From positions 62,001-126,000 of the forward strand of contig JACPQD010000021.1 of assembly GCA_016190665.1 (NCBI GenBank): 64,000 bases of DNA. Reading direction: 5' to 3'. This document shows positions 2,573-63,514 of the stretch, piece by piece. Below the pieces are notes generated by a model. It was not told the DNA's origin, ran no database searches, and saw only the letters and a list, made by a program, of their open reading frames with translations. The DNA is from Chloroflexota bacterium. Its GTDB lineage: Bacteria > Chloroflexota > Dehalococcoidia > JACPQD01. Position numbers and translations under genes: made by a program. The first letter of the stretch is position 1. The number at the start of each line of letters is the position of its first letter.

Positions 2573-4261
2573 ATGGGGGAGCCGGTTTACGAGGTCGTAT
2601 GGCCGCTTGGCAGATCGGCCTACGATACTTTGCCTCTCGCTCCCCGTGGCCCTGATCTACGGGGAAAGACAGTCTGCGAGTTATGGGATCGTATCTTCAG
2701 GGGCGAGAAGATTTTCCCCCTGCTCAGGGAGTCACTCTCGAAGCAGTTCCCCGGCATCAAGTTCGTTGACTATACATCCTTCGGCAACACAACCGGGCCG
2801 AAGCAGAGGGAGGTGATCGCGACTCTCCCCGATCTGCTTCGCAGGCACAACTGCGATGCGGTCATATCCGGGGTCGGTGGCTGAGGGAGCTGCACGCCCG
2901 CAGTTATGCGGGCAAGCGCCGCCACGGAACGGACCGGTATCCCCAGCGTGTCGCTCGTCGCCTCAGGCTTTGTGCAACAGGCCCATGCTATAGCGAAGGC
3001 GCTGGGCGCCGAGAACCTCCCGGTTGCTGAATACCCGGGCGTCCCCATGATAGACAGCAATGAGGAGTTGCGAAACAAGGTTGAGCGGGCCCTCGTCAAT
3101 CACGTAATCAAGGGAGTAACCGCCTCAGTCACTGACTCGACCAAGCCTGTCGAGCCGGGGCCGCGAGACGTCATATTCAAGGGGGCTCTGGACGAAGTCC
3201 AGGAGCACTTCCATAAGAACCTGTGGACCGATGGTCTTCCCATAATTCCGCCGACCCTCAACAGGCTAGAGGAGTTTCTCAGATTCACTGACAGGTCGCC
3301 CGACGAGGTGATTGGCGTGCTGCTGCCGGAGAACCGTGAGGCCACTGCCTGGAATGTCGCCGTCAACGGCGTGATGGCCGGCTGCCGTCCAGAATACATG
3401 CCGGTGTTGGTGGCTATAGTGGAGGCGATAGCCGAGCCTGATTTCCGTATAGAGGACGCCGGGAGCACGCCAGGCTGGGAGCCACTCGTCATCGTGAATG
3501 GGTCGATTGTCAAAGAGCTTGACTTCAATTATGGCTCAGGCGTCATGCGTGTCGGGAGGCGGGCCAATACGAGCATCGGCCGGTTCTTGCGACTCTACAT
3601 GCGGAACGTGCCAGGGCTGCGCATACCTCCTGGGGCAACGGACAAGGGCAGTATTGCGCAAACCTTCAATGTAGTACTGGCGGAAGACGAGGATGCGGTG
3701 GCGGAGCTTGGATGGGACCCCTTCAGCGTAGACCGCGGGTTCAAGCCCGGTGAGAACGTTGTTACTGTCCAGAGCGTAGTGAGCACGAGCCCGCCCTGTT
3801 ATAGCGGCGGACATACGCCGGTTGAACACCTCCAGACGATTGTGGAAGTAATCGGACGTACCATGGCGTACAAGACACCTTCAGCCATACACCAGGGCAG
3901 GCTCTATCCGCTCTTCGTAGTCAGTCCGAGCGTTGCCGGTGTCCTCGCCAGAGGCGGCTGGACCAAGAACAGGATACGGGAGTACTTGTTTGAAAACATT
4001 AGAGCGCCGGCGAGCTTGATAGAGCGAGTAGCCTGGGGACAGGGGGAGACTGACTTCCACCTCCCGAAAGAGTACTGCCAGTCGATGGATCCAGACCGGT
4101 TGATCCCGGTGCTGTTCAAGCCTGAATGGATAGGGATTGTCGTTAGCGGTGATCCGGGCAGAAACCAGAGCAAGGGCTACGTGCAGAACCATAAGCAGGG
4201 GCCGCCGGTAAGCAAGAAGATAGCGCAGCCAGTGTTCTTGGGGCAGTCGATTGGTCGGTAG
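2573..4261 (+). CDS. UGSC-family selenoprotein fused to a large unknown domain (TGA at 2882-2884 read as Sec)
   Basis: One frame runs through a TGA at 2882-2884 to TAG at 4261, giving 562 residues with Sec at 104 and Cys at 107 (U-G-S-C). The frame is conserved on both sides of the TGA: CDAVISG before it and TPAVMRAS after it recur in paralogues. Residues 1 to about 200 form the UGSC domain. Residues from about 205 on form a large domain with WTDGLPIIPPT, then AGC-x-PEYMP (Cys271), VNG and SIGRFLRLY. I chose the ATG at 2573, not 2567, because GGAGGAG lies 7 nt before 2573 and only 1 nt before 2567, and MGEPVYEVVWPLG matches the 7829 paralogue. UxxC suggests redox chemistry; substrate unknown. 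An SBP follows 39 nt downstream. Confidence 0.88.
2896..2913 (+). promoter_or_regulatory. putative bacterial SECIS hairpin
   Basis: Starting 11 nt after the in-frame TGA, arms GCCCGC and GCGGGC pair perfectly (6 bp) around the loop AGUUAU. Position and size fit a bacterial SECIS element, which lies inside the coding sequence just after UGA. Confidence 0.6.
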
Positions 4262-4300
4262 CGTGTCGTTCGTATTGTCGCGGTGGCAGGAGGTTATGAG

Positions 4301-6016
4301 ATGCACACCGGGAAGCTTATAGCGAGTTCCCTGGCAGTTCTGGGACTGTTAGTGGCAAGCTGCGCCCCCGCGACCGCGCCAGCAGCGACGCCCAAGCCAG
4401 CGGCTCCGGCTGCAGCTACGGCGACACCGGCAGCGACGCCAGAGAAGCCAACCGCGCCGGCCGCCAAGCCTGCCGCCCTGTCCCCAACCGCAAAGCCAGC
4501 GTCAGAGCAACCAGGGTACGGCGGCATAATGACGGTGGGCGCTGGTGGAGACCCACCCAGTCTCGATCCTCACCAGGAGACAACCAGTTACACCCTGAGC
4601 GTGGTAGGCCCCTCTTATAATAGCCTCGCCCAACACGACCCGAATGCCTGGCCGGAGGCGAAGATCGTATCGGACCTGGCGCAGAAATGGGACGTCTCTG
4701 CCGATGGCGTCACTTACACCTTCCATTTCCCCGAGGGGATACGCTGGCACGATGGTGCACCGTTCACGTCGGCGGATGCAAGGTTCAGCATCCAGAGAAT
4801 GGCGGCGCCGCCCAGGGGCACGCGCAGCCCGCGTTCAGACCTTTTCGAGGTAGTGGACCAGGTGGAAACCCCCGACCCGCGGACGCTGACGTTGCGGCTC
4901 AAGAGCCGCTCCGCCTCTTTCGTGCCCATCCTGGCCATGGGCTGGAACGTCATCCTGCCCCAGCATGTCGTTCAACAGAAGGGAGACATGAAGAAGGATG
5001 TCGTGGGCACCGGACCTTTCAAGTTCAAAGCGTACTCTCCAGGCGTCAGTTATGAGGTGGTGAAGAACGAAGGCTACTTCCGCAGGGGGCGTCCTTACCT
5101 GGACGGGATCAAATGGTACACGATTCGGGACGGCGCCACCCGGTTCTCCGCCCTGAGGACGGGCCGCATCGCTCTGATAGAGCCGACCCCGGGCATTAGC
5201 GCTTCTCAAGCCAACCTGCTGGAGAAGTCCGTCCCGGAGGTCCAGGTCCAGCGAACGCCCTACTATGCCATGCTTGCTGTCCTGCTTAACGTCAGGATGA
5301 AGCCCTGGAATGACGTCAGAGTGCGCCAGGCAATGAATCTCGCTCTGGACCGCCAGTCGTTGATCGACGTTGCCCTGGAAGGTAGAGGAGTAATAGGCGG
5401 TCTCCTCTTCCCTGGGGGCCTGTGGGACCGCCCACGTGAAGAGCTCCTACAGAAGCCCGGCTACCGGAGGCCCACCGAATCGGACATCGCCCGGGCGAAG
5501 GGAATGCTGGGCGAGGCGGGTTTTCCTACGGGCCTCTCATCGCCTCTCCTGGCCAGGATGGATCTTGTTGAAAGCCATCGCTCCGCTGAGCTGGTCAAGA
5601 GGGAGATGGCCAAGCTGGGCATCGACCTGAGTATAGAGTTAAAAGAGAGCGCCGGATTCTACGATGCCCTGGACAGACACTCTTTCAGCGCCGCCGTGAT
5701 GACTATTGGGGTCCATGTGGATGACCCGGACGTGGTCTTCCCGGTAATCTTCGCCACCAACGCGTCGAGGAACTACATGGGCTACAGTGATCCTAAGGTC
5801 GATGAACTGATTGCAAGACAGTCCACTATCCTGGACAAGGCAGAGCGCACCAGAGTGGTGCGGCAGGCGGAGGACATTATTATCGGGGCGGTCCCGGCCA
5901 TCGTCCCTTGCTGGCTCGTTCGGGTCGCCGCCAACTCGCGCAACCTGAGGGACTACAAGATGGCTCCGGGCGGGGGCGTCAACAAGATGATGCAAGACGT
6001 CTGGTTGGCCAAGTAG
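4301..6016 (+). CDS. family-5 (peptide/nickel type) ABC solute-binding lipoprotein
   Basis: The protein has 571 residues. A signal peptide ends in the lipobox LLVAS-C21, followed by an Ala/Pro/Thr linker to about residue 75 and then the SBP family-5 fold starting QPGYGG. Family landmarks are IRWHDGAPFTSADA, VGTGPFKFKAYSPG, NDVRVRQAMNLALDRQ and the end MQDVWLAK. It would be membrane-anchored outside the cell and deliver an oligopeptide-sized or other small organic ligand to a permease. ATG 4301 is preceded by GGAGG at 7 nt. It lies 39 nt after a UGSC gene and is most like the SBP at 56333-58063 (both have DPPSLDPH and ETTSY). Confidence 0.93.
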   Translation: MHTGKLIASSLAVLGLLVASCAPATAPAATPKPAAPAAATATPAATPEKPTAPAAKPAALSPTAKPASEQPGYGGIMTVGAGGDPPSLDPHQETTSYTLSVVGPSYNSLAQHDPNAWPEAKIVSDLAQKWDVSADGVTYTFHFPEGIRWHDGAPFTSADARFSIQRMAAPPRGTRSPRSDLFEVVDQVETPDPRTLTLRLKSRSASFVPILAMGWNVILPQHVVQQKGDMKKDVVGTGPFKFKAYSPGVSYEVVKNEGYFRRGRPYLDGIKWYTIRDGATRFSALRTGRIALIEPTPGISASQANLLEKSVPEVQVQRTPYYAMLAVLLNVRMKPWNDVRVRQAMNLALDRQSLIDVALEGRGVIGGLLFPGGLWDRPREELLQKPGYRRPTESDIARAKGMLGEAGFPTGLSSPLLARMDLVESHRSAELVKREMAKLGIDLSIELKESAGFYDALDRHSFSAAVMTIGVHVDDPDVVFPVIFATNASRNYMGYSDPKVDELIARQSTILDKAERTRVVRQAEDIIIGAVPAIVPCWLVRVAANSRNLRDYKMAPGGGVNKMMQDVWLAK

Positions 6017-6072
6017 TCCGTTGTCCGGAAAGGGCAGTCGGGGGGAGTGGCAGTAGATAAGGAGGTCCAAGA

Positions 6073-7769
6073 ATGCGGGCGAAAGATTTCTCCCTGTTAG
6101 CAGGTTGTCTGACGGTTGCAGGGCTGTTGCTGGCAAGCTGCGCCCCTGCCGCAGCCCCATCGCCAACATCCAAACCAGCGCCAGCCGCACCCAAACGGAA
6201 GCTCAAGCCGCGAAGGCGGTGACGCCTTCGGGGATGCCCTCTCCAACTCCGAAACCAGCCGCGGACCAGCCAGGGTACGGCGGCATAGTCACCAAGTCCA
6301 CCAATCGAGACGCCGCGAGCTTTGACGTGCAGCGAGAGCAGGGGCAGGATGCTTCCGCAACATTGTTTAATGTTTACCAGGGGCTGGTGCGGGTCCACAC
6401 TACTGAGCATAAGAAGATCGTGCCCGAGCTGGCGGAGAAGTGGGAGTTGAGCGCCGACGGCAGAGTCTACACTTTCAAGTTCTATGGCGGGGTCAAATGG
6501 CACGATGGCAAGCCCCTCACCATGGAGGACGTCAAGTACAGCCTGGAGAGGATGCACAACCCAAAGGCGTTTAACACCGTCTCGCCGCGCGGGCAGGGCC
6601 TGCTTGCAGCGATGGAGAGCGCGGAAGTGGTCAACGAGGATACGATCAGGATCACGACGAAGTACCCCAGCGCCTCCTTTTTGGGCAGCCTGGCCTCGGG
6701 CTGGGTAGCCATCGAGCCAAAACACATCCTCGTGGCCAAAGGGGATATGAGAAGGGACCTGATAGGCACGGGCCCCTTCAAACTGAAGAGGTTCAATCCC
6801 GACATCAGCCTGGAGCTTGAGAAGAACCCTAACTACCATGTTAAGGGTCTGCCCTATCTCGACGGCATCCAGTTCTTTACCATTAAGGATGCCGCCACTC
6901 GCTTCAGCGCTTTTCGCACGGGGAAGGTGTTGATGACCTTCGACGGTTCAGCCGGCCTCACGCCGCCAGAGGCGGATATCGTCAGGCGAGAGATGTCAGA
7001 CAGGGCCGTGGTCTACGAACACGATTCGCAAGGCCGCATCAATGTCACTTTCAACATGAACCGCAAGCCCTGGAACGACGTAAGAGTGAGGAAGGCTGTG
7101 GACCTGGCCCTCGACCGCCAGGCCGCGATTAGGATCAATGGCAATAGGGGAGTTATCGGTTCCATCTATGTGGGACCGTGGGGCATGAAGTCTGATGAGC
7201 TGGCGAAACTGCCGGGCTATCGGCAGCCCAAGGACGCTGACCTGGCTGAGGCCAGGAAGCTGCTGGCCGAGGCAGGCTACCCCAACGGCTTCAAGACCAC
7301 GCTCGTCTACCGCACGGGGGGAGCAACCGAGCAGCAAGGTGTCATCAGAAAAGATCAACTGGCGAGAATCGGCATCGATGTCGAACTGATGCCGATGGAG
7401 TATGCCGCCGTACTGGAACGCGCGCAGCGGCGCAACTTTGACCTGCTGGCTATCAACTGGACGGACAACATGGATGATCCCGATGAGGCTCTTTACACCT
7501 ACTACTACACCGGGGGCGGACGCAATTACGGTGATTTCAGCGACAAGGAGATAGATGCGCTCATCGACAAGCAGGCACGCACGGTAGACGCCGAGGCCCG
7601 GAAGGTTATCCTGGCAGAGGTCCAGCGCAGGATCATGGCCCAGGCGCCCATGCCTATCAGCTTCTGGGACGTCTGGCAGACTGGCGTCTGGCGGCAAGTC
7701 AAGGGGTACAATCCCGGCCCCGGCATCCATCCCTGGGGCAAGCTGGAGGGCGTCTGGTTGGCAAAATAG
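6073..7769 (+). pseudogene. family-5 solute-binding lipoprotein with a frameshift in the N-terminal linker
   Basis: ATG 6073, after AAGGAGGTCC, opens a good lipoprotein signal peptide ending LLLAS-C23. That frame stops at TGA 6220-6222 after 49 codons. The SBP body continues in another frame through EAQAAKAVTPSG and QPGYGG to QVKGY and VWLAK at 7769. The frames are reconciled by one missing base (or two extra) near 6190-6200, at a CCCAAAC tract in the Pro/Ala linker. Without repair the body loses its signal peptide. It is a close paralogue of the intact SBP at 9674. A sequencing or assembly error is equally possible. Confidence 0.75.
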
Positions 7770-7828: not shown

Positions 7829-9556
7829 ATGGGTGAGCCGGTATATGAGGTGGTGTGGCCGCTTGGCAGATTAGTCTACGAAACATTGCCTCTCGCCCAT
7901 CGCTGTCCGGACCTGGCGGGGAAGACGGTCTGTGAGCTGTGGGACTGGCTCTTTCGCGGCGGTGAGATTTTCCCGGCCATCCGGGAGGTCCTTTCAAGCC
8001 GATACCCTGATATCAAGTTTGTCGAACACACAGTGTTTGGCGACACGCGTGGAGCGAGGGAAAGAGAGGTCGTGGCGGCGCTGCCCGATCTCCTCCACAA
8101 GCACGGATGTGATGCGGTCATCTCCGGCATAGGGGCGTGAGGGGGTTGCACGCCCGCGGTGGTGCGGGCAAGCGCCGTGGCAGAAAAGGCCGGAGTGACC
8201 AGCGTCTCGATTGTAGCTTCCGGATTCATGCGGCAGGGAGGCGCGGTGGCGAAAGCCCTCGGAGTGGAGAACCTGGCCCTGGCCGAGTACCCTGGCCTTC
8301 CGATGATCGATAGCAAAGAAGAGCTGCGCCGGAAGGTGGAAGACGTCCTGGTAGGCAATGTCGTTAGGGGCCTGACCATGCCTGCCCGGGACGCTGTGAA
8401 GCCTGTTGAGCCCGGGCCGAAAGATACTGTGTTCAGGGGAACCCTGGAGGAAGTCCAGGAGTTCTTTTATGACAACCTGTGGACCGATGGCCTTCCCATA
8501 ATGCCGCCGACCCTCGACAGGGTCGCGGAGTTCCTCAGATTCACCGGCAGGTCTCCCGACGAGGTGATTGGCGTGCTGCTGCCGGAGAACCGTGAGGCGA
8601 CGGTCTGGAATGTCGCCGTCAACGGAGTAATGGCTGGCTGCCGCCCTCAGTACATGCCAGTGCTGGTGGCCATAGTAGAGGCAATAGCCGAGCCTGAGTT
8701 CCGCATAGAGGACGCCGGGAGCACGCCGGGCTGGGAGCCGCTCGTCATCGTGAACGGGCCCATAGTCAAGGAGCTGGATTTCAACTACGGCTCAGGCGCG
8801 ATGCGCGTGGGGAGGCAGGCAAACACGAGCATCGGGCGATTCCTGCGACTCTACATGCGGAACGTGCCGGGGCTGCGCATACCTCCCGGCGCGACGGACA
8901 AGGGCACTTTTGCGCAGAGTTTCAATGTGGTGCTCGCAGAAAACGAGGATGCGATCGCCGAGCTTGGCTGGCAGACCTTCGGCGTCGATCGGGGGTTCAA
9001 AGCTGGCGAAAATGTTGTAACAGTGCAGAGCGTCATAAGTATAAGTCCGCCTGCTTACACCGGTGGAGAAAAGCCCATCGACCATCTGGCAACGCTGGCG
9101 GAATTGATCGGACACCGTTCAATGGCGTACAAGACCGGCTCGGCGGCCCATTTCGGCAGGTTCCACCCTCTCTTCGTGCTCAGTCCGAGTGTGGCCGGTG
9201 TCCTGGCCAGGGGAGGCTGGACTAAAGATGACATACGGCGCTACCTTTACGAAACCGTTAGAGAGCCAGCAACCATCCTTGAGACGATACAACGCGGCCT
9301 GACCAGCCACAGGTTCTGCGCCGCTGTGGAGCAAGGCATTCTCTCGAAGGATTTCTGCCTGTCAACCGATCCGAACAGGCTGGTGCCCGTCTTCTTGAGG
9401 CCGGACTGGATAGGCGTCGTTGTAAGCGGCGACCCCGGGAGAAACCAGTGTAAAGGGTATGTGCAAAACCACAAGCAGGGTGTGCCGGTGAGCAAGAGGG
9501 TAGAGCCGCGAAGTCGCGGGAGACTGGCAGGGCAATGCCAGGCGTCCAGTCGTTAA
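7829..9556 (+). CDS. UGSC-family selenoprotein fused to a large unknown domain (TGA at 8138-8140 read as Sec)
   Basis: This 575-residue frame has Sec104 and Cys107 in the variant U-G-G-C. AAGGAGG lies 9 nt upstream of ATG 7829. The UGSC part keeps EPVYEVVWPLGR near the start, CDAVISGIGA before Sec and TPAVVRAS after it. The large domain has WTDGLPIMPPT, AGC271-RPQYMPVL, DFNYGSGAMRVGR and SGDPGRNQ near the end. It is a close paralogue of the genes at 2573, 19017 and 25282. It lies between two SBP genes (59 nt after one, 117 nt before the next). Confidence 0.88.
8152..8169 (+). promoter_or_regulatory. putative bacterial SECIS hairpin
   Basis: Arms GCCCGC and GCGGGC form 6 perfect base pairs around the loop GGUGGU, starting 11 nt after the in-frame TGA. 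The loop keeps the G-G-U that characterises the best-known bacterial SECIS. Confidence 0.6.
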
Positions 9557-11362: not shown

Positions 11363-12499
11363 GTGTCAGAACTGATTTCACGCCGTTTCGCTGCTGATGA
11401 TTTCGAGGCGGCCATAGAATTCATCTATCGAAACGGCTGGACCGATGGGTTGCCTGTCATACCGGCAACGGAGGCTAAGATTCGCCGGTTCCTCGAAGTC
11501 GCGGGGCTGGAGCCTGAGTACGTAATCGGCCGGATTCCGGAGCGGGACCGCATCATAACCGCCGAGAAGCTGGCCATTAATGCAATCATGGCCGGCTGCC
11601 TTCCTGAGTACATGCCACTGCTCGTTGCTGCTGTTGAAGCGGTCACTGCGCCAGAATTCAAGTTCAACCACCTGGCGAGCATGGGGAGCCCGTGGCCCGC
11701 TTTGATTGTCAACGGCCCCATCAGCCAGCAGTTGGGCATTAACAGCGGTATGTATGTCCTTGGGCCGGGGTGCCGTCCCAACGCCACCATCGGACGCGCG
11801 ATCAGTCTTCTACTGTGGAATTGCGCCGAGGCCAGGCCGGATGGCGTCCAGCGCGGACAGTGGGGGCATCAAGGCCGCTGGAGCACCTGCATTGCTGAGG
11901 ACGAGAGCACAGAATGGGAGCCTCTGCACGTTCAGCTTGGCTTCGACCGGGCGAGTAACGTTCTGACAGTGGTCTCCCATTACCCTTCGCCGGTCATCGT
12001 GGCCACTTCCCGGGCGGTTCCTGAGCGGATCCTGGACGCCGTCGCGGATTGCATTGCCACGAATGATTTTATCCGCGGAATCTACGTGCTCATGGTGCCC
12101 CGGCAATTCGCCGAGATTTTTATCAGCGCGGGTTGGTCAAAAGCCGATATCCGCGATTACCTTTTTGAGCACAGCAGGCGTTCGATAGCAGACTTGAAGC
12201 GTCGGGGGCGGTGGAATGCCATCTGGGGCGGACGCAAAGAGACGAGAGAGACAGAAGAGGACACGTTGACGATCAAGGAAGGCGACGAGAGCGAATTCGC
12301 TTATGTGCTGAAGTCTTGCGAATATGACGAGATCATGTTCAGCCCCGGGATGCTGGCGCGTCGTCACGACGTGTTTGTGGTGGTTTGCGGCGGCAACGCG
12401 GGCTCCCGTGTGGCCTTTCTAACCCCTTACGGGACAGCGAGTGATGCGGTGACCAGACCAATCACTATGCGTGGCGCTCGGGGGGCGCAAGATGCTTGA
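11363..12499 (+). CDS. stand-alone UGSC-associated large domain protein
   Basis: This 378-residue protein starts with GTG after GGGAGG. It matches only the large domain of the fused UGSC genes: GWTDGLPVIPAT near residue 32, EKLAINAIMAGC-LPEYMP, NGPISQQLGINSG, NATIGRAISLLL, AEDES and WEPLHVQLGF. It has no UGSC domain of its own. The next gene, a short UGSC selenoprotein at 12492, overlaps its 3' end by 8 nt, so the two halves are translationally coupled. Near the C-terminus it has an insert rich in Glu and Arg (around RKETRETEED) absent from the fusions. Function unknown. Confidence 0.82.
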   Translation: MSELISRRFAADDFEAAIEFIYRNGWTDGLPVIPATEAKIRRFLEVAGLEPEYVIGRIPERDRIITAEKLAINAIMAGCLPEYMPLLVAAVEAVTAPEFKFNHLASMGSPWPALIVNGPISQQLGINSGMYVLGPGCRPNATIGRAISLLLWNCAEARPDGVQRGQWGHQGRWSTCIAEDESTEWEPLHVQLGFDRASNVLTVVSHYPSPVIVATSRAVPERILDAVADCIATNDFIRGIYVLMVPRQFAEIFISAGWSKADIRDYLFEHSRRSIADLKRRGRWNAIWGGRKETRETEEDTLTIKEGDESEFAYVLKSCEYDEIMFSPGMLARRHDVFVVVCGGNAGSRVAFLTPYGTASDAVTRPITMRGARGAQDA

Positions 12500-13106
12500 G
12501 TTCTTTGACCCAACTGAGGGGCCGAGCAAAGAGGAAGCGAAGCTAGCCAAGCGACCAGCCACACTCGACGGGTTGACGCTTGGGGTGATTTGGAATGGCC
12601 GGCCGGTGGGCGACGCCATTTTGAAGAGAGTCATTCAGTCTCTTCGGAGCCGCTACCGGATTGAGGACGTGCTCTTCCGGAGAAAGACGTTCGTTGGAAA
12701 CATGTCGCCGCCGGAAATCATGGACGAGCTAGCTACGAAATGCCAGGTGATCATCATCGGAGTGGGCGACTGAGGATCATGCACGTCGGGCGGTGTGCTC
12801 GACGCAGTTACCCTGGAGCGCAAAGGCGTGCCGACGGCGGCGATCGCTGTCGAGAAATTCGCTCAGACGACGGGCCGCGGGATGGCGAAAGTGCAGGGCC
12901 TCCCTGACTATCCGATTGTGACCATCCCCCATGATCGGGGCCCTTTGGAAGACATCCGGCATAATCCGCAGGAAATCCGAAGGGTGGCCGAGATCGCAAC
13001 GAACAAAGTGGTGTTGGTCCTTACGAGCGGTGTCATAGAAGCGGCCTCGGACCACAGGCTTTCGGAGGCAAAAGCACAAGATCAACAGCCCTCGCCCGGC
13101 AGATAG
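12492..13106 (+). CDS. short UGSC-family selenoprotein (TGA at 12771-12773 read as Sec)
   Basis: The continuous frame gives 204 residues with Sec94 and Cys97 in the textbook U-G-S-C order. This is the UGSC domain alone. It has GLTLGVIWNGRPVGDAIL in the N-terminal half, CQVIIIGVGD just before Sec, and TSGGVLDAVTLERKGVPT after it. The ATG at 12492 lies inside the end of the preceding large-domain gene (overlap 8 nt), so this is the split form with order large domain then UGSC. An SBP follows 46 nt downstream. Reading the TGA as stop would leave a downstream piece lacking a ribosome binding site. Confidence 0.88.
12784..12804 (+). promoter_or_regulatory. putative bacterial SECIS hairpin
   Basis: Arms CGUCGGGC and GCUCGACG pair over 8 positions (one G-U) around the loop GGUGU, starting 10 nt after the TGA. 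The sequence differs from the GCCCGC hairpins of the paralogues but the pairing is kept, which argues for selection on structure. Confidence 0.65.
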
Positions 13107-17065: not shown

Positions 17066-17141
17066 CCGATTCTGGCTTTGCCTATGTCGCGGCCCAGTGC
17101 GTGGAACAGATAAATATGCCAGCGGTAGGAGGAGGACATTA

Positions 17142-17699
17142 ATGTCAGAACAACTCTGGGATTTGCGTAGTCCGCGTGGAGGCAGGGCGACGAAGCAGCG
17201 AGAAAACGCGCCTAGACTGCATGAACTGCGGGGTACGAGAATCGGGATCATGGATGACGGCTTCCCCAATGCGGCCGTTGTGCTCGATCGGATTCGGGAA
17301 CGCCTGTCCGCGCGAGGCGATCTGTCACTGACGGGCTATCGGAGGCATCGTTCGGTAGGGTATTTCGACCCGAAAGAGCTCCTGGAGGACTTTGTCAAAG
17401 ACTGTGATGCGGTGATCGTTGGTGTGGGCGCTTGAGGGGGCTGCACCACATGGTGTATCCATGAGGCGACGTACCTTGAAGGACGCGGCATTCCCACGGC
17501 GACCATATGCACCGAGGCATTTCTGCCTTTGGCAAGCCGCGAGGCCGCCTGCCTCGGCTTCCCGTCTCTCCCAATGGTACCTTTCCCTCACCCTGTCAGC
17601 GGCATTCCGTTTGACGAGCTGGAACGAAGAGCGGATGCCATCCTGGACCAGGTCGTCGCGGCGCTGGCTGACCGCCCAGTCACTGTAGCCCGGTCTTAG
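17142..17699 (+). CDS. short UGSC-family selenoprotein (TGA at 17433-17435 read as Sec)
   Basis: The frame of 185 residues runs from ATG 17142, after AGGAGGAGG, to TAG 17697-17699 with Sec98 and Cys101 (U-G-G-C). The part before Sec has GTRIGIMDDGFPNAAVVLDRI and CDAVIVGVGA. The part after Sec has EATYLEGRGIPTATICTEAF, the usual helix-strand continuation of the family. The post-TGA part has no nearby in-frame ATG or ribosome binding site, so it makes sense only if the TGA is read through. A stand-alone large-domain gene follows after 20 nt, which is the split form with order UGSC then large domain. Confidence 0.87.
17449..17463 (+). promoter_or_regulatory. putative bacterial SECIS hairpin (weaker)
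   Basis: Arms CAUGG and CCAUG form 5 base pairs around the loop UGUAU, beginning 13 nt after the TGA. A competing CACC/GGUG pairing overlaps it, so the exact structure is uncertain. Confidence 0.45.
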
Positions 17700-17719: not shown

Positions 17720-18781
17720 ATGGCAAATGACGGAATCTTGCAGACTGACAGGGTGCGGGTCTCTGGATCATTCGTTGACCTCCAGGATAGGTTGCACGAA
17801 CTGGGCTGGACGGACGGCCTTCCGGTCGCGCCGCCGATGGATGAAGCCGTTCTGTCCATGCTGCGGGGCACCAGGCGACAGCCCCAGGAGGTGGTCGCGG
17901 TCATCCCGCCGGACATGGGGCAGGCCTCGGTGGAGACCATAGCTGTCAACGCGGTCATGGCCGGTTGCCGACCGCAGTATCTTCCTGTCGTGATCGCCGC
18001 GGTGGAGGCGATGGCGCAGCCGCAGTTCCCGCTCGCCGCCATGCAAGTCACGACACATGCCATAGCTCCCCTGGTGATTGTGAATGGCCCGATCCGGACC
18101 AAGCTAGGCATGAACTCCCGAACAGGAGCCTTTGGGCCTGGCAATCGAGCCAACGCGACCATAGGAAGAGCTGTTCGCTTAGTCCTGATCAACGTGGGGG
18201 GATCGAAGGCGTGGACGAAGTGCACTCTGGGCCATCCCGGTCAGTATACCTTCTGTATCGCTGAAAATGAGGAGGAAAGCCCGTGGGAACCGCTGCACGT
18301 GGAGCGTGGTTTCCCGGCCGATGCGAGCGTGGTGACCGTTGACGCGGTCGAAGCTCCGCGCGGCCTCAGCGATCCCGGAAGCAGGAACGCACTGGAGGTG
18401 CTTACCACGGTGTCTCTCGCGTTGAGCGACCCTGCTACAAGCCAGATCAAGTATCAGCGAGGGGAACCGATTATCTGCTTCGGGATTGAGCATGCCGCGA
18501 CAATCGCCAGAGACGGTCTCACCAAGGACCAGGTGAAAGAATACGTCTTTGAGCATGCCGGCATCCCTATTCAGCGAATCTCAGAAGGCAATCGTCTGCT
18601 CAGGAAAGCGTTCCCGGATACGTATATGGACGTCGGGGAAGATGGCATCTTGCCTATCGGGACCAGCAAGGACAATCTAGTGATAATCGTCGCCGGCGGC
18701 GAGGGTAAACACTCCTGTTGGCTTCCCACAGGTGTGGACAGTCCGGCAGTGAGCCGGCTCATCGCTGACATACCAGAGTAG
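17720..18781 (+). CDS. stand-alone UGSC-associated large domain protein
   Basis: The 353-residue protein has the large-domain motifs in order: GWTDGLPVAPPMDEAV, ETIAVNAVMAGC-RPQYLPVV, VNGPIRTKLGMNSRTGAFGPG, ANATIGRAVRLVLINVGG, IAENEEESPWEPLHVERGF and a final IIVAGGEGKHSCW. It has no UGSC domain, no signal peptide and no membrane segment, so it should be cytosolic. It lies 20 nt after the short UGSC gene and is almost certainly co-translated with it. Conserved Cys in NAVMAGC is retained. Function unknown. Confidence 0.82.
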   Translation: MANDGILQTDRVRVSGSFVDLQDRLHELGWTDGLPVAPPMDEAVLSMLRGTRRQPQEVVAVIPPDMGQASVETIAVNAVMAGCRPQYLPVVIAAVEAMAQPQFPLAAMQVTTHAIAPLVIVNGPIRTKLGMNSRTGAFGPGNRANATIGRAVRLVLINVGGSKAWTKCTLGHPGQYTFCIAENEEESPWEPLHVERGFPADASVVTVDAVEAPRGLSDPGSRNALEVLTTVSLALSDPATSQIKYQRGEPIICFGIEHAATIARDGLTKDQVKEYVFEHAGIPIQRISEGNRLLRKAFPDTYMDVGEDGILPIGTSKDNLVIIVAGGEGKHSCWLPTGVDSPAVSRLIADIPE

Positions 18782-19016: not shown

Positions 19017-20726
19017 ATGGTGGCGGAACCCACGTACGAGGTAGTATGGCCTCTAGGTAAGTCAGTCTACGAGACTATCCCCCTGGCGGCTCGCGCCCCG
19101 AACTTGGACGGCAAGACCGTTTGTGAGCTGTGGGACTGGCGGTTCAGGGGACGAGAGGTTTTCCCCATCATCAGAGAATCCCTCTTGAAACACTACCCGG
19201 GAATCAAGATCATCGATTATGACTCCTTCGGCAACACGCACGGGCCTAACGAGAGGGATGTAGTTAGGGCGATCCCGGACCAGCTCCGCCAGCGCGGCTG
19301 TGATGCCGTTATCTCGGGCATAGGCGCTTGAGGAAGCTGTACGCCTGCGGTCTTGCGGGCAAGCGCCGCGGCGGAAAAGGCCGGCGTGCCTACAGCGTCC
19401 ATTGTGGCTTCTGGTTTTGTCAGGCAGGCACGTGCCGTAGCAAGAGCCCTGGGAGCGGAGAACATCGCTGTCGCCGAATATCCGGGCGTGCCCATGATAG
19501 ATAGTCCGGTGGAGCTACGCCGGAAAGTTCAAGAAGTGGTCGTCAACAGCGTCATCGAGGGTTTGACCAGACCAGCCAAGGACTCGGTAAAGATTGCTGA
19601 ACCAGGTCCCCGGGACATCGTATTCAAAGGGACCCTGGAGGAGGTCCAGGATTTCTTCTACAGGAGCCTGTGGACGGACGGATTACCAATGATGCCGCCC
19701 ACTATCGATAGAGTCGAGAAGTTCCTGAGATTCTCCGACCGCTCCCCTGAGGAGGTCATCGGCGTCCTGTTGCCGGAGAACCGCCAGGCTACGGTGTGGA
19801 ACGTTGCGGTTAACGGAGTCATGGCGGGCTGTCGGCCGGAGTACATGCCGGTGCTGGTGGCGGTGGTGAAAGCAATGGCCGAGCCTGACTTCCGCATCGA
19901 GGACGGCGGCAGCACACCGGGCTGGGAGCCTCTGATCGTATTGAACGGACCCATAATCAAAGAGCTTGACTTCAACTATGGCTCAGGAGTGATGCGAGTG
20001 GGACGGCAGGCTAATACCGCCATCGGACGCTTCCTGAGACTATACATGCGGAACATACCAGGATTGCGGATGCCACCTGGGGACACCGACAAGGGCAGCA
20101 TCGCCCAGAGCTTCAATGTGGTCCTGGCGGAGGACGCGGACGCCGTGTCTGAGCTTGGATGGCAAACCTTTGGCGTTGACCAGGGGTTCAAGGCGGGTGA
20201 CAATGTGGCCACGGTGATGAGTGTCGCCAGCATAAGTCCGCCTATCTACAGCGGCGGCCACACAGCTCGGGATCATATGGAAACAATCGCTGAATTGATA
20301 GGATGCTCTTTGGCCTACTGGACAAACATGGCGGCTCAGGTTGGCAGGTTCCATCCTCTCCTTGTGCTCAGTCCGAGCGTTGCCCGTGTGATAGCGAGGG
20401 ATGGCTGGTCCAAGGACGATGTCAGGAAGTACCTTTACGACAACGTGAGGATGCCCGCCGGGAAGTTGGAACGGCTCCACGCCGGCCTGAACAGGTGCAG
20501 TTTCTGCGAGGAGGTCGAGCGGGGCGTCATACCTGAGGATTTCTGCCTGTCGAAGGACGCGGACAGGATGGTGCCCCTGTTCCTCAGACCTGAATGGATA
20601 AACATCGCGGTGAGCGGAGACCCCGGTAGAAACCAGAGCAGAGCGTATGTGCAGAACCACAGGCAGGGCCCACCGACCAGCAAAAAGATAGATTTGCCAC
20701 CCAACTGGCATCGACTTCTTGGATAG
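19017..20726 (+). CDS. UGSC-family selenoprotein fused to a large unknown domain (TGA at 19329-19331 read as Sec)
   Basis: The frame encodes 569 residues with Sec105 and Cys108 (U-G-S-C). It has EPTYEVVWPLGKSVYE at the start, CDAVISGIGA before Sec, and TPAVLRAS after it. The large domain has LWTDGLPMMPPT, NGVMAGC-RPEYMPVLVA and DFNYGSGVMRVGR, and ends near SGDPGRNQ. The ATG at 19017 follows GAGGT by 5 nt; a GTG one codon later is possible. The gene follows a 235-nt gap, so it may start its own transcript. The glycyl radical enzyme lies 206 nt downstream. Confidence 0.88.
19343..19360 (+). promoter_or_regulatory. putative bacterial SECIS hairpin
   Basis: Arms GCCUGC and GCGGGC form 6 pairs with one U-G wobble around the loop GGUCUU, starting 11 nt after the TGA. 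The loop includes GGUC, as in the Escherichia coli fdhF SECIS apex. Confidence 0.65.
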
Positions 20727-53442: not shown

Positions 53443-55155
53443 CTACCTGGCCAGACTTTCTTTGGTCAGCTTGTCCCAGGCCGCGGGGAACTTTATTTCC
53501 CTGGTGACCGGCCTGAAATAGTTGCACCAAAGGCTCATCATCTTGTCTCGGTATGCGTCCCCGCACACGACGACGTCGAACAGGTCGGCGCTCGTGAACA
53601 TTGGAATCGTCTCCTGAGGCCCCACGTCAAACCACTTTGGCAGTGTGCCGCCCTTTACCAGGTCACGGACAGTGATGTCCTTTCCGGTGTGCGCCTGCAG
53701 GTGCCAGTTTTCCTCGCCAAGGTTAGTCCTTACATTCTGCCACAAATACTCCGCGACGTCCCGTTTCGAGTAGCCATCCCTGGCCAGAACTTTGGCGGTA
53801 GGAGGTGTTACAAGCAAGGCAACCTGATTGCGCGATCCGAACAGCAGTGACAGCTCGGTGATGGTTTGCCGCTCCTGATGTTTGCATGCCACCTTAAGGA
53901 TGGCCTCCGCCGATGGGCCCGAAGGGTGCGCGGGAGTGCCTTGGCCTCCCCAGTAGACAGTCGCTCGTGCGGTAACGGTGCTCGCGTCTTTGCTGAAACC
54001 ATGCTCCACGTGGTAAGGAGGCCAGCCGATAGCCTCGCAAGCATCCTCGTCCTCGGCCAGCACGAAGGGCAGGTAATAGCCCCACGTGCCCATCCAGGTG
54101 TCTCCCGACCTGAAGCCGGCGACGTTGTTCAGTATCAGGCCGAGAGCGCGACCAAGCGCAGGGTTGGGACCGCGCGAACGAAGCCCGATACCGTACTCGA
54201 TTCCCAACTGCTTCACAATTGGTCCGTTTACCAGCAACCAGGGTGTTTTGCAACCCGTGCTACCGAGATTGATCAGTTGAAAATCGGGGTCTGCCACCGC
54301 CTCCACGGCTGCGATCAGCAGTGGCATGTGCTCGGGCAGGCAGCCCGCCATGATTGCGTTCGCGGCAATGTTGCGCGGGGTCGCGCGCAGGTTTGCCTGC
54401 GGGAGTACGGCTACCTCTTCATCGGCCGAGCGGTCCGTGTATCTTAGAAATTGCTCAACCTTGTCTGCGGCAGGAGGGATAATCGCCAGGCCATCCGTCC
54501 ATCCCTTGTCGCGGAAGAACTTGTTAACTTCCTCCAAGTCGCCGCTGAACACGATCTCCCCTGATTTCCCCTCGGCGCCCGCCGCCCCTCGCTTCTCCGG
54601 CGGCTTAGTCAACCCCGCGACGATCCGTTCAAAGGCCACTTTTTCCAGAGTCTCTCTTATCTGTTCATCTGTATGAAGCTGAATCGCGCCGGGATATTCG
54701 GCAATTCCCAGGTCAGGCATCCCCGCCCAGGAAGCTGTTAGAGAAGCAGTGCGCACAAAAGTCGTGCCCACCAGGGGCACAGCGGGGATACCGGCTTTGG
54801 CGGCTGCCACGGCTGGCCGCGTACTCGCGGGCGTGCAGGTCCCTCAGAACCCGTTGCCGGTTATCACGGCGTCGCAGCCCTTCTGGAGGGCCAGCTCCAC
54901 CATCGCTCTTACACGCTCGAGCAACTGATCGGTGTTGCCGTGAACGTCTTGGATCGGGAACTCGGTGTACGGAATCACCTTCACACCCGGATATCGCTTC
55001 TGCAGCAACTCCCTGATTATGGGAAAGGTAACGAAACCCCTGAATCCCCCATTCCATACCTCGCAAACTGTCTTCCCGCTTAAGTCTGAAAGCCGAGGAG
55101 CACTGCCTGCTACCTCGACGGTTGGCTCACCACGTGGGCTGACGACGCGATACAT
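53443..55155 (-). CDS. UGSC-family selenoprotein fused to a large unknown domain (TGA at 54846-54844 read as Sec)
   Basis: The frame gives 570 residues with Sec104 and Cys107 in the variant U-G-T-C. ATG 55155 follows TAGGAGG. The UGSC part has KTVCEVWNGGFRGF, CDAVITGNGF before Sec and TPASTRPAVAAAKAGIPAV after it. The large domain has GWTDGLAIIPPAADKVEQFL, NAIMAGC-LPEHMPLL, STGCKTPWLLVNGPI and a final CNYFRPVTREIKF. This subtype (GNGF before Sec) is shared only with the gene at 59986-61737. The SBP at 51668 follows after 89 nt. Confidence 0.88.
54817..54830 (-). promoter_or_regulatory. putative bacterial SECIS hairpin
   Basis: On the - strand, CCGCG and CGCGG form 5 perfect pairs around the loop AGUA, beginning 13 nt after the TGA. 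It is smaller than the hairpins of the + strand genes. Confidence 0.5.
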
Positions 55156-55243
55156 CCTGTCTCGACCTCCTACTTCTTGGTCTGCTCCCAGTCGACCTTC
55201 TGGATTTGTCCTGCGGCGAAGAGCACACAACGTCGAGTACCCA

Positions 55244-59985: not shown

Positions 59986-61737
59986 TTACATGGCAGCTTC
60001 ATTTCCCTTTTTCCCCAGCAGCCAGCCACCAGGCAGCCTTATTTCCTTCGTGACGGGCTTGTTATAGTTGCACCAGAGACTCATTGTCTTATGTATGTGC
60101 GCGTCCCCGCTTACGATAACGTCTATCACGTCGGGGTTTGGAAGGATTGGGACCGTCGCCTCCGGGCCCACGTCGAACCACTTTGGCAGCACCCCCTCTG
60201 CCACTATGTCGTGAACGGTGCGAAACCCTGAAGATACGTCTCTATCGAAACCGGCGAATCCTTGCATCAAAGTATTTGCCCTGCCCACGGCAATCCTCGT
60301 GTTCTGCCACAAGTACTCGGCGACATCGCGTTTGGAGTAGCCGTTACTCGCCAGAACCTTGGCAGTGTAGGGTGTTACCAGAACGGCTACCATTACGCCT
60401 TCTCCAAAGGGCAGGGACACCTCAGTGGGGACCATTCGTTCCTGATGGTTGCACATGACCTGGAGGATGGACTTCGCGCTAGCTCCCGCGGGACGCGCCT
60501 GGTCGCCCCAATAAGTGGTGGTCCTGGCAGTCACCGTACTCGTACCCCGTGCAAAGCCGTGCGCCACATGGCACGGCTCCCAGCCGATCCCATCGCAGGC
60601 ATCCTCATCCTCCGCAAGAACGAAGGGCAAGTAATAACCCCAGGTCCCCATCCACGTTTCCCCCGGTCTGAAACCAGCTATGTTGTTCACTATCAAGCCG
60701 AGGGCGCGGCCGATGGCCGGATTGGGCCCGCGTGAACGAGCCGCGACGCCGTACTCGATGCCCAACTGCTTCACAATGGGTCCGTTCACCAGCAGCCAAG
60801 GCGTCTTGCAGCCCGTGCTGCCGATGCTCATCAATTGGAAATCCGGCTCGCCCAGAGCCTCCACCGCTGCGATCAGCAACGGCATGAACTCCGGCAGGCA
60901 GCCTGCCATGACCGCATTGGCAGCGATGTTCCGGGGAGTAGCTCGCAGGTTTGCCTGGGGGAGGATGGCTATTTCTTCGTCAGCGGAGCGGTCAGTGTAT
61001 CTCAGAAACTCCTCGACCTTGTCCGTTGTGGGAGGGATTATCGGCAGTCTATCGGTCCAGCCCTTCGCAGAGAAGAACACGTTCACTTCCTCGAACGTGC
61101 TGAACACCATCTTCTTCTGGCTCTTGGGCTTGGTGGCCGTGCTTCGGGTCCGTCCCGCCCCAGTCAGGCCCTCGACGATGCGGTCAAATACCACGTTTTC
61201 CAGATTCTCTCTTATCTCGGCGTCCGCTGCAAGTTGGGCCGCTCCTGTCTCCGTGTGAAGCTGAATCGCGCCGGGATATTCGGCAACTCCCAGGTCAGAT
61301 AAACCTGCCCAGGAAGCTATCAGAGAAGCGGTACGCGCGAAAGTCGTGCCAACAACTGCAACGGAAGGAATACCAGCTTTGGCTGCTGCTATGGCCGGCC
61401 GCGTACACGCGGGTGTGCAGGTACCTCAAAAGCCGTTGCCGCTTATCACTGCGTCGCAGCCCTTTTGGATTGCCAGGTCTACCATAGCCTTCACGCGTTC
61501 CAGGAGCTGGCCGGTGGTACCATGGAAGTCCTGCAAGGGGAATTCGGTATAGGGAATCACCTTTACGCCTGGATATCGCTTCTCCAGCAACTTGCGAATA
61601 ACGGGGAAGGTGACGTTACCTCTGAAAGCCCCATTCCACACCTCACAGACTGTCTTGCCATTCAAGTCGGAAAGACGAGGTGCAATGGCTACTTCCTCGA
61701 CGGTTGATTCGCCGAGAGGGCTGACAACCTTATACAT
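59986..61737 (-). CDS. UGSC-family selenoprotein fused to a large unknown domain (TGA at 61428-61426 read as Sec)
   Basis: The frame gives 583 residues with Sec104 and Cys107 (U-G-T-C). ATG 61737 follows CAAGGAG. It is the twin of the gene at 53443-55155: KTVCEVWNGAFRGN, CDAVISGNGF before Sec, TPACTRPAIAAAKAGIPSV after it, then GWTDRLPIIPPTTDKVEEFL (Arg in place of the usual Gly in DGLP), NAVMAGC-LPEFMPLL and STGCKTPWLLVNGPI. No ATG occurs for about 75 codons after the TGA, so the UGSC half cannot be explained as two normal genes. Its SBP follows after 24 nt. Confidence 0.88.
61399..61412 (-). promoter_or_regulatory. putative bacterial SECIS hairpin
   Basis: On the - strand, CCGCG and CGCGG pair over 5 bp around the loop UGUA, starting 13 nt after the TGA. 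The position matches that in the twin gene at 53443-55155. Confidence 0.5.
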
Positions 61738-61862: not shown

Positions 61863-61864
61863 GT

Positions 61865-63514
61865 CTACTTCTTGACCTCAACCGTGACCGGGGCGCCGAC
61901 CCCCGTCAGGTAGGCGGACTTGCCCACGGGCCCACCGACCACGGCGATGTGGAACCAGTCGGGCCCGGCGGCGATGGGCAGCAGCATGTCCTCCGGGGCA
62001 TCCCGAAGCCACCGCCACGCAGGGACGTTGCTCTCTGGTTCAAAACAGCCGCCGTATTTGAGGTAGCGCCACTCGATGCGGGCATTATGGTAAAGGTATT
62101 CCTTGGCATCCTGCTTCGTCCAGCCCTGGTCGGCGATAATCTTGGCATGCTCCGGGCAGATGAGCAAGAAGGGTTGCCAGATGCGGCCCCCTTGCAGCCA
62201 GGCGCCGACGTGGGCGCCGGCGCTATTCCCCGTGCCGGCAAAGGACTGAAGGACGTGCTCTGGCGTGTAGCTTCGGAGATCGGCCATGTTTATGAAGGAT
62301 TCAACGCCGAAAACGGTGACTGTGCTGGTATCCTTGCCGAACCCCCTCTCCACGTGAAGCGGCTCCCAGGGATTTTTGTCCTCGTTCTCGGCGACGCACA
62401 TGCTGTACTTGTTGGGCGACCCAATGGTATCCATATCGAGTTCGCCTACGTAAGTGTGACCGATGTTCATCATGATGAGCCTGATGGCTCGACCAATGAC
62501 GGTATTGGCGCGCGACTGGCGCCCCGGGCCCAGTGCACCGATGCCGGAGTTAATGTTGAGCTCCCTGGCGATGGGGCCATTCACGATGAGAATGGGGGCA
62601 TGGGGACCGGTGGAGACAGCAACGCTCCTCATGTTGAAGGCTGGATCGGCCATCCCTTCTACAGCGGCGATGAGGACTGGCATGTGTTCCGGCAAGCATC
62701 CGGCCATGACGGCATTGATGGCGACCTTTTCCACCGTGGCCTCTCCGTTCCCAGGTTCCAGAACAGTCACCAGGTCGCTTCGAGGACGGCTGGCGCCCGT
62801 CAGCATCCTGTCAACCTTCTCTGGCGTGGGCGGTATTAAGGGGAAGCCGTCTCCCCATCCGTTCCTGAGGAAAAACTCGTTCATCTCCTCGAAGGCGTCG
62901 TAGCTGCTGGGGGCCTGAAAGCTGAAGGTCTTGAGACCGGGCTTCTCCTCCGACACTGCAACCTCGACCTCTTTGGTCAGGCCTTCGATTACGCTATTTA
63001 AGCTATCAGCCACGACCTCCTGGGTATCTTCTGGCGAGAGGTTGGTCAGGGGTGTGGAAATCATGGCCAAGGCTATGTGCTTCATGCCGAAGGCCTTCGC
63101 GGTAGCCCGAGCATCAGACTGGAAGGCGCTGGCGTTAAGCATTACCGTGGGAATCCCTCTCTTCTCGAACTCCACCATGTCGCGGGCAAGCCACGACGTG
63201 CATGCCCCTCAGTCAGCGGTGGCGCTAACGATACCCTCGCAGCCACTTTGGGCCATCTTGTCAATAATATCGTTGCCGTGGGGATAGATATAGGAGAACT
63301 TCTCGAACTTCAGGCCCTGGAACCTGGTCTGCAGCATCCGGGCAACTTCCTCCAGGCCGACGTCGGCCCCTGGCTTGGTGTTCGAATAAAGGCCAATCTT
63401 CCGGCCGCTCAAATCGCGCAGGCGAGGCGCTGGGCGGACAGTCTTGGCCGCTATGGCCGCCACAGGGTCCAGCACCTCCAGAACCCGGACTCCAGTATCC
63501 TGTCGAATTGTCAT
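61865..63514 (-). CDS. UGSC-family selenoprotein fused to a large unknown domain (TGA at 63211-63209 read as Sec)
   Basis: The frame gives 549 residues with Sec102 and Cys105 (U-G-A-C). ATG 63514 follows GGGAGG. It is the most divergent fusion: RVLEVLDPVAAIAAKTV at the start, GRKIGLYSNTKPGADVGLEE, CEGIVSATAD before Sec and TSWLARDMVEFEKRGIPTV after it. The large domain has GWGDGFPLIPPTPEKVDRML, NAVMAGC-LPEHMPVLIAA, VNGPIARELNINSG and AENEDKNPWEPLHVERGF. It resembles the edge-truncated gene at 1-768. A CoA-transferase gene lies 84 nt upstream on the same strand. Confidence 0.87.
63179..63197 (-). promoter_or_regulatory. putative bacterial SECIS hairpin
   Basis: On the - strand, GUCGUGG and CCGCGAC pair over 7 positions (one U-G) around the loop CUUGC, beginning 11 nt after the TGA. 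The sequence is unlike the other hairpins, but the pairing is kept. Confidence 0.55.

What the first reader, a model, noticed from the sequence alone, without database searches (positions are those of the whole stretch)
2573..63514. Nine genes with an in-frame TGA inside a U-G-x-C motif: a dense cluster of UGSC-type selenoproteins
At 2882, 8138, 12771, 17433, 19329 and 25591 (+) and at 54846, 61428 and 63211 (-) a TGA interrupts a frame that is conserved on both sides. It is preceded by CDAVI-type strands and followed by G, then S/G/A/T, then Cys, then T. All nine have TGA at the same place and none has a Cys codon there. This matches the family I know as UGSC (seleno)proteins. Nine in 61 kb is an exceptional density of selenocysteine use, and conventional gene callers would split or truncate each one.
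Basis: partly seen in the sequence, partly recalled or inferred. Interest (0 to 1): 0.95.

Follow-up and report, generated by a model that had tools for sequence, protein, structure and literature searches.

The report
Genome with 159 predicted selenocysteine enzymes
Nine genes in this stretch, and at least 159 across the one draft genome, carry an in-frame UGA codon that is likely read as the rare amino acid selenocysteine, about two and a half times the largest bacterial set named in a 2026 review, and the proteins are predicted to be enzymes that would break bonds in molecules the cell imports.

Summary
Each TGA sits in a frame conserved on both sides, in a U-G-x-C motif, and all nine proteins pass the Pfam UGSC model. 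The selenocysteine reading is strongly supported: 55 of 55 uninterrupted homologues examined have Cys at the TGA; a hairpin follows the TGA far more often than synonymous shuffles give; the genome encodes SelA, SelB and a SelD with its own in-frame TGA; TGA still ends ordinary genes. One gap remains: no tRNA-Sec was found in this 107-contig draft.

The finding is larger than reported. At least 159 UGSC genes with TGA were counted in the draft (a Chloroflexota bacterium, probably Dehalococcoidia), against 63 selenoprotein genes for the largest bacterial set named in a 2026 review. Every UGSC protein in the window has a second ~350-residue conserved domain, fused (7) or encoded next to it (2), and many sit beside family-5 solute-binding proteins, themselves greatly expanded. 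The Sec module aligns, Sec on Sec, with the C-terminal half of GrdB/PrdB selenoproteins. I infer thiol-coupled reductive cleavage of imported substrates; that step is untested and the substrates are unknown. The family is known; scale and layout are the news.

The parts
2567..4261 (+). UGSC-partner fusion, TGA (predicted Sec) at 2882-2884
7829..9556 (+). UGSC-partner fusion, TGA at 8138-8140
12471..13106 (+). short UGSC gene, TGA at 12771-12773; partner is the gene just upstream
11363..12499 (+). free-standing partner subunit (C-terminal domain of the fusions), no Pfam family
   Evidence: 283.9 bits to the partner-domain HMM; no Pfam hit over cut-off
17097..17699 (+). short UGSC gene, TGA at 17433-17435; partner is the gene just downstream
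17720..18781 (+). free-standing partner subunit, no Pfam family
   Evidence: 364.0 bits to the partner-domain HMM; AF2 model pLDDT 86.3
19017..20726 (+). UGSC-partner fusion, TGA at 19329-19331
25255..27033 (+). UGSC-partner fusion, TGA at 25591-25593 (start codon uncertain, 25255 or 25282)
53443..55230 (-). UGSC-partner fusion, TGA at 54844-54846 (start codon uncertain)
59986..61737 (-). UGSC-partner fusion, TGA at 61426-61428
61865..63514 (-). UGSC-partner fusion, TGA at 63209-63211; protein modelled by AF2
10..768 (+). partner-domain tail of a tenth fusion whose TGA lies left of the window (contig C9:61377)
   Evidence: 245.3 bits to the partner-domain HMM; HMM hit C9:61110-61613 with one TGA
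2896..2913 (+). SECIS-like hairpin after TGA 2882, 7 of 7 pairs
8152..8169 (+). SECIS-like hairpin after TGA 8138, 7 of 7 pairs
12785..12803 (+). SECIS-like hairpin after TGA 12771, 7 of 7 pairs
17447..17465 (+). SECIS-like hairpin after TGA 17433, 6 of 7 pairs
19343..19360 (+). SECIS-like hairpin after TGA 19329, 7 of 7 pairs
25605..25622 (+). SECIS-like hairpin after TGA 25591, 5 of 7 pairs
54815..54832 (-). SECIS-like hairpin after TGA 54846, 6 of 7 pairs
61397..61414 (-). SECIS-like hairpin after TGA 61428, 5 of 7 pairs
63179..63197 (-). SECIS-like hairpin after TGA 63211, 7 of 7 pairs
4283..7769 (+). two family-5 solute-binding protein genes (4283-6016, 6105-7769)
   Evidence: PF00496
9674..11335 (+). 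family-5 solute-binding protein gene
   Evidence: PF00496
13153..17065 (+). two family-5 solute-binding protein genes (13153-14844, 15377-17065)
   Evidence: PF00496
23552..25255 (+). family-5 solute-binding protein gene
   Evidence: PF00496
27075..36557 (+). region with four family-5 solute-binding protein genes (27075-28769, 28905-30638, 31638-33305, 34845-36557), a hydrolase, a PCC-domain protein and an HpcH/HpaI aldolase
36598..38471 (+). Opp/Nik-type ABC permease pair
   Evidence: PF00528
46283..53566 (-). four family-5 solute-binding protein genes (46283-48037, 48150-49802, 49884-51638, 51668-53566)
   Evidence: PF00496
56333..59961 (-). two family-5 solute-binding protein genes (56333-58063, 58303-59961)
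   Evidence: PF00496

Best explanation
The nine genes encode UGSC-family (PF24696) proteins whose in-frame TGA is predicted to be read as selenocysteine, they belong to at least 159 such genes in one draft genome that is likely a Chloroflexota bacterium, and each protein likely works with its ~350-residue partner domain as a selenol enzyme that would reductively cleave substrates predicted to be brought in by the neighbouring solute-binding proteins. Shown by calls: the frames, the family, the Cys-for-TGA homologues, the hairpin excess, SelA/SelB/SelD, the copy number, the partner domain (fused or adjacent), the adjacency to solute-binding proteins, and the profile match of the Sec module to the C-terminal half of GrdB/PrdB with Sec on Sec. 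Inferred: the selenolate at the start of the helix after strand 94-100 attacks a carbon of the substrate held by the partner domain; the Cys of U-x-x-C releases the product and leaves a selenenyl-sulfide; a thioredoxin-type system reduces it. My confidence is about 0.96 for selenocysteine, about 0.9 that the count is mainly one organism's paralogues, and about 0.45 for the GrdB/PrdB-like chemistry; the figure in this field is for the whole.
For: Frames and family. Cys at the TGA in 55 of 55 uninterrupted homologues among the 120 best of 6504 hits, the other 65 having no residue aligned upstream of it. Hairpin: 148 of 159 genes have a stem of score 5 or more versus mean 73, maximum 88 in 200 synonymous shuffles, and 32 to 41 of 159 at four control positions of the same genes; at least 6 of 7 pairs in 116 of 159 versus mean 30.6, maximum 43 in 100 shuffles. 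Machinery: SelB 353 bits, SelA 568.1 bits, SelD 385.9 bits with TGA in AAGUAAKL. Purifying selection on both sides of the TGA. Count: of 165 HMM hits in the DNA fetched, 159 have TGA in UGxC, 4 have no TGA, 2 are weak fragments; none of the 163 has Cys at that place. Paralogues of one organism: median nearest-neighbour identity 0.70, none at 0.95 or above. Partner: 7 of 9 window genes fused, 2 with an adjacent free subunit; 31 of 33 short UGSC genes with enough sampled flank have a free partner within 1.5 kb. Solute-binding protein within 1.5 kb of 50 of 73. GrdB/PrdB: hhalign 95.1% probability, Sec on Sec, 71 columns, 23% identity; 85.3% with the motif masked; 20 column-shuffled controls at most 2.6%, reversed control 3.2%. 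Thioredoxin link: trxB-trxA beside partner-UGSC in Arthrobacter, trxB next to selA in the Paracoccus UGSC island.
Against: No tRNA-Sec in the assembly. The draft has 6.13% estimated contamination. None of the four UGSC proteins scanned at E 10 hits Pfam GRDB, and the GrdB/PrdB alignment covers about 70 residues only; 2 of the 9 GrdB/PrdB-type sequences used lack the +3 Cys. A pyruvoyl partner of the PrdA/GrdE type was not looked for; the actual partner domain matches no Pfam family and only weakly any solved fold. Thioredoxin genes were seen at two of eight plasmid loci inspected and not in the window. 23 of 73 UGSC genes have no solute-binding protein within 1.5 kb. The sampled DNA was chosen around UGSC hits, so densities are not genome averages.
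Confidence: 0.6

Rival explanations
1. The proteins are selenocysteine-containing, but act as redox or detoxifying proteins (peroxidase- or disulfide-reductase-like) rather than as substrate-cleaving catabolic enzymes.
For: UxxC is a common redox motif and the GOS paper groups UGSC with Trx-like redox selenoproteins (PMC2398784, passages); thioredoxin genes lie beside two distant homologues.
Against: 159 diverged copies (median nearest-neighbour identity 0.70), solute-binding proteins next to most that could be checked (50 of 73), and a conserved second domain with invariant polar residues look like substrate diversification; the Sec module aligns with GrdB/PrdB.
Confidence: 0.25
2. The TGA is read as another amino acid, most likely Cys, by a suppressor tRNA or by reassignment.
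For: Homologues have Cys at this place; tRNA-Sec was not found.
Against: TGA ends 15 of 47 ORFs of 200 aa or more on C84 and 108 of 357 in all DNA fetched; the hairpin excess sits at the TGA; SelA, SelB and SelD are present; tRNA-Sec is present in 33 of 60 genomes of the class searched. No suppressor tRNA was seen in the stretches scanned, which cover only part of the genome.
Confidence: 0.03
3. The count is inflated by a mixture of several organisms or strains in the draft genome.
For: 6.13% contamination; the review makes the same caution for the 63-gene MAG (PMC13188914, passage).
Against: No two UGSC domains are 95% identical and two reach 0.90; 42 of 159 lie on two contigs of 359 and 351 kb; G+C of the sampled contigs is 0.57-0.66.
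Confidence: 0.08
4. The UGSC-partner pair is a ligand-sensing or scaffold module for the solute-binding-protein transport systems, not an enzyme.
For: Adjacency to solute-binding proteins; four paralogues have lost U and C.
Against: U and C are kept in 159 of 163; free-living Cys forms occur beside catabolic genes and without family-5 binding proteins in the plasmid loci seen.
Confidence: 0.06

Closest known systems
UGSC family (seleno)protein, Pfam PF24696 / NCBIfam NF041046
   Same: Same domain and U-G-x-C motif; fusion of UGSC to a conserved 'Unknown_1' domain was reported in GOS data (PMC2398784, passages); I did not see its sequence, so identity with the partner domain is not tested.
   Different: At least 159 copies in one genome; all nine window proteins score below the NF041046 equivalog cut-off; free partner genes and solute-binding-protein neighbours are described here.
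GrdB / PrdB, substrate subunits of glycine/betaine/sarcosine and D-proline reductases (PF07355)
   Same: A strand, U-x-x-[C/S/G], helix and E-x-x-G-[IL]-P-type module that aligns Sec on Sec with UGSC.
   Different: No PF07355 hit; a different partner domain; pyruvoyl partner and acetyl-phosphate formation were not looked for.
Selenoprotein-rich bacteria: Olavius algarvensis Delta 1 symbiont (57 genes), a Methylomirabilota MAG (63 genes)
   Same: Large bacterial selenoproteomes (numbers from PMC13188914, passage).
   Different: At least 159 genes of a single family here.
Family-5 solute-binding proteins (PF00496) of Opp/Dpp/Nik-type ABC importers
   Same: 16 in the window, clear Pfam members.
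   Different: 133 scored hits, all over the cut-off, of 368 candidates in the genome; in the window one permease pair (36598-38471) was recognised among the genes scanned.

Membership tests
UGSC family (Pfam PF24696) | score over Pfam gathering cut-off (25 bits) | tested here: met
   9 of 9 window proteins, 86.1-156.2 bits
UGSC family equivalog (NCBIfam NF041046) | score over curated cut-off (125 bits) | tested here: not met
   0 of 9; 44.3-119.7 bits. Filed under PF24696, not under this narrower model
Selenoprotein genes | in-frame TGA with conserved coding on both sides | tested here: met
Selenoprotein genes | Cys homologues aligned with the TGA | tested here: met
   55 of 55 uninterrupted homologues examined
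Selenoprotein genes | bacterial SECIS-type hairpin just downstream of the TGA | tested here: met
   excess over synonymous shuffles; SelB binding not tested
Selenoprotein genes | SelA, SelB, SelD in the genome | tested here: met
Selenoprotein genes | tRNA-Sec in the genome | tested here: inconclusive
   none found in an incomplete 107-contig draft; 63 bits or more in 33 of 60 genomes searched in the class
GrdB/PrdB (PF07355) | Pfam GRDB match | tested here: not met
   no hit at E 10 for four UGSC proteins of the window; GRDB matches read through here end at the Sec TGA
GrdB/PrdB (PF07355) | homologous Sec-bearing module | tested here: met
   hhalign 95.1%, masked 85.3%, controls at most 3.2%
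GrdB/PrdB (PF07355) | pyruvoyl-forming partner (GrdE/PrdA) | not tested
   not searched for
GrdB/PrdB (PF07355) | reductive C-N cleavage | not testable with these tools
   needs an assay
Thioredoxin-fold proteins | Trx fold | tested here: inconclusive

The most novel reading that the evidence does not exclude
One uncultured Chloroflexota lineage has made selenocysteine the workhorse of its catabolism: some 160 diverged UGSC-partner enzymes, many with a solute-binding protein beside them, form a combinatorial repertoire of selenol-dependent reductive cleavage enzymes, a new enzyme class related to GrdB/PrdB, and give the largest selenoproteome of any known organism.
Probability: 0.4. Interest if true: 0.93.

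Novelty: new variant of a known kind. Interest (0 to 1): 0.87.

Why it matters
Selenocysteine is usually described as a rare, costly residue; a 2026 review names 63 genes as the upper bound for a bacterium (passage). A genome with at least 159 genes of one Sec family would more than double that, and none of the 163 copies examined has Cys in its place although Cys forms exist in other organisms. It makes two open questions testable: what UGSC proteins do (functions of such selenoproteins are called largely uncharacterised in the review passage), and what selects for Sec over Cys. The partner subunit and the adjacent solute-binding proteins give a handle on substrates. Ordinary gene calling splits or truncates such genes (65 of the 120 homologues fetched start after the TGA).
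Full report
1. The motif is U-G-[S/G/A/T]-C-T. All nine proteins pass Pfam UGSC, PF24696; none passes the narrower NCBIfam equivalog NF041046. Seven are long (549-595 aa) and two short (211 and 200 aa).

2. It is a genome-wide feature. The window is bases 62001-126000 of contig C9 of a 5.0 Mb, 107-contig draft (96.55% complete, 6.13% contamination). A search with PF24696 scored 150 of 208 candidates and all 150 passed the cut-off: 143 with one TGA, 3 with two, 4 with none. One of the nine window genes (25591) is missing from that list, so the list is a lower bound. The pattern TGAGGNNSNTGYACN matches 170 times genome-wide against 14 for its reversed control. I fetched stretches around these hits; only the first 100 pattern places were listed, and not every pattern-only place was fetched. 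With an HMM built here, 165 hits were found: 159 have TGA in UGxC, 4 have no TGA, and 2 are weak fragments of 36 and 38 bits that I set aside. The lowest-scoring of the 159 has 52.6 bits. Not one of the 163 has Cys at the TGA position; the four without TGA have lost both U and C of the motif. So the count is at least 159.

3. Not a strain mixture, as far as sequence can tell. Nearest-neighbour identity among the 159 domains has median 0.70; two reach 0.90 and none 0.95. 42 lie on two contigs of 359 and 351 kb.

4. Why selenocysteine. (a) Among the 120 best of 6504 database homologues of the 63211 protein, 55 are uninterrupted and all 55 have Cys at the TGA position, including proteins named as from Phytohabitans suffuscus, Roseixanthobacter liquoris and Paraburkholderia caffeinilytica; the other 65 have nothing aligned before it. 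(b) SelA, SelB and SelD are encoded, and SelD itself has an in-frame TGA in AAGUAAKL. (c) A hairpin with stem between +14 and +32 follows the TGA; 148 of 159 genes have a stem of score 5 or more against a synonymous-shuffle mean of 73 (maximum 88 of 200 shuffles) and 32-41 of 159 at four control positions; 116 of 159 form at least 6 of 7 stem pairs in the best register against a mean of 30.6 (maximum 43 of 100 shuffles); mean folding energy is 11.8 s.d. below 30 shuffles. (d) In 43 paralogue pairs third codon positions vary two to four times more than first and second, similarly before and after the TGA. (e) TGA remains a normal stop.

5. The gap. No tRNA-Sec was found in the draft. In 33 of 60 genomes searched (own included) a tRNA-Sec match of 63 bits or more is present, ARAGORN agreeing for the 5 of 5 checked. 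They include the UGSC-rich G027 (46 UGSC matches) and G044 (15); G009 and G045 (81 and 62% complete, 7 and 17 UGSC matches) lack one too. I take the absence to be an assembly gap; that is inference.

6. The organism. The closest named SelA relatives are Dehalococcoidia and Chloroflexi MAGs, 63% identity at best; the search of relatives found none closer than same class. 23 of the 60 genomes, own included, have a UGSC match; after this one the highest counts are 46, 17, 15 and 12 (counts there are capped at 48 a genome).

7. Anatomy. The C-terminal ~350 residues of the seven long proteins form a second conserved domain for which no Pfam family was found in the members scanned. The two short genes have free-standing copies of it next to them: 11363-12499 and 17720-18781. 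Across the sampled DNA, 31 of 33 short UGSC genes with at least 1.4 kb sampled on both sides have a free partner within 1.5 kb; without regard to flanks it is 48 of 57. Distant homologues on plasmids show the same pair as two genes, in either order, in the archaeon Natrinema, Arthrobacter and Paracoccus, or as one reading frame in Acidovorax and Variovorax; in Neorhizobium the annotated gene boundary falls inside the partner domain. The AF2 model of the 63211 protein is confident (pLDDT 93.2, pTM 0.93): the Sec, modelled as Cys, is residue 102, between strand 94-100 and helix 103-118. Invariant in 95 aligned proteins are the Sec position, G103 and C105 and, in the partner domain, W220, N267, N337, N350, E376, W383 and K467 among others.

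8. Neighbours. The window holds 16 family-5 solute-binding protein genes. In the sampled DNA 50 of 73 UGSC genes with flanks have one within 1.5 kb (29 of 39 fused, 20 of 33 short), while contig C84 (73 kb) has neither. The genome has at least 133: all 133 scored of 368 candidates pass. Two glycyl-radical enzymes, a 2-hydroxyacid dehydrogenase, an aldolase and glyoxalase-like proteins add to a catabolic picture.

9. Mechanism. I read nine of the twelve fetched PF07355 (GRDB) loci through: each match is followed by a TGA, in U-x-x-C in seven and U-G-T in two. Aligning the 159 UGSC domains with these nine gives 95.1% probability with Sec on Sec (E 3.2e-8 for a single comparison), 85.3% with the motif masked, against at most 2.6% for 20 column-shuffled controls and 3.2% for a reversed one. 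For PrdB, a Clostridium sticklandii paper proposes that the selenolate attacks the alpha carbon of proline held by the pyruvoyl subunit, making a selenoether that a Cys then cleaves to a mixed selenide-sulphide (PMC3091704, passage). I transfer this logic: the partner domain holds the substrate, Sec attacks, Cys+3 resolves, a thioredoxin system restores the selenol. trxB-trxA beside partner-UGSC in Arthrobacter and trxB-selA in the Paracoccus island that carries UGSC, partner and selB fit; these are two of eight plasmid loci inspected. The substrate is unknown, and the bond cleaved (C-N, C-S, C-O or other) is open.

10. What is new. The family, its Sec motif and a fusion to an unknown conserved domain are in print (PMC2398784, passages). 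New here, as far as my searches show: the number of copies, at least 159 against 63 named as the upper bound (PMC13188914, passage); the regular pairing with a partner, fused or in trans; the coupling to a matching expansion of solute-binding proteins; and the profile-level link of UGSC to GrdB/PrdB. I file it as a new variant of a known kind.

Noticed in passing
own genome G000, whole: Very large expansion of family-5 solute-binding proteins: 133 scored hits, all over the cut-off, among 368 candidates.
   Followed up: partly
window 20933-23362 (+) and 42158-44611 (-): Two glycyl-radical enzymes related to choline TMA-lyase, diol dehydratase and sulfopropanediol dehydratase but below every NCBIfam cut-off shown (PDB search done for the second only).
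   Followed up: partly
L196 8001-9658 with L225 13553-15924 (Paracoccus ferrooxidans plasmid pFER4): Island with trxB, selA, DsrE and TusA-type proteins, a cysteine desulfurase, a UGSC gene with in-frame TGA, its partner, and selB: looks like a Sec cassette serving UGSC.
   Followed up: partly
L194 8640-10163 (Acidovorax sp. T1 plasmid p2-T1): Fused UGSC-partner gene with in-frame TGA on a plasmid typed as conjugative IncP; annotated only as a 96-residue hypothetical protein.
   Followed up: no
L055, L056, L057, L058 (own genome C20, C62, C101, C58): Four UGSC paralogues without TGA whose motif reads SGV[WY] (three) or VGGSN (one): both Sec and Cys are lost, so perhaps a different chemistry or a regulatory role.
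   Followed up: no
L199 7809-9533 (Sporomusa termitida), L200 7653-9338 (Vibrio europaeus): Distant fused relatives with M-G-T-S at the motif, near aconitase X and DUF126 genes.
   Followed up: no
L202, L203, L205-L211: Matches to the Pfam GRDB model end at the Sec TGA; the model seems built from truncated proteins and misses the part after the Sec.
   Followed up: partly
L209 (own genome C9:215280-215657): A further predicted selenoprotein, PrdB-like with U-P-V-C, besides the TGA-containing SelD; a second own hit at C71:101721-102119 was not read through.
   Followed up: partly
own genome C72:52287-52811, C101:30937-31443, C19:47279-47767: Three UGSC hits reported with two TGA codons inside the match; not resolved whether a second Sec or an end effect.
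   Followed up: no
own genome, sampled DNA: TAG is the commonest stop (192 of 357 ORFs of 200 aa or more) versus 52 of 144 in pooled Chloroflexota selA loci.
   Followed up: partly
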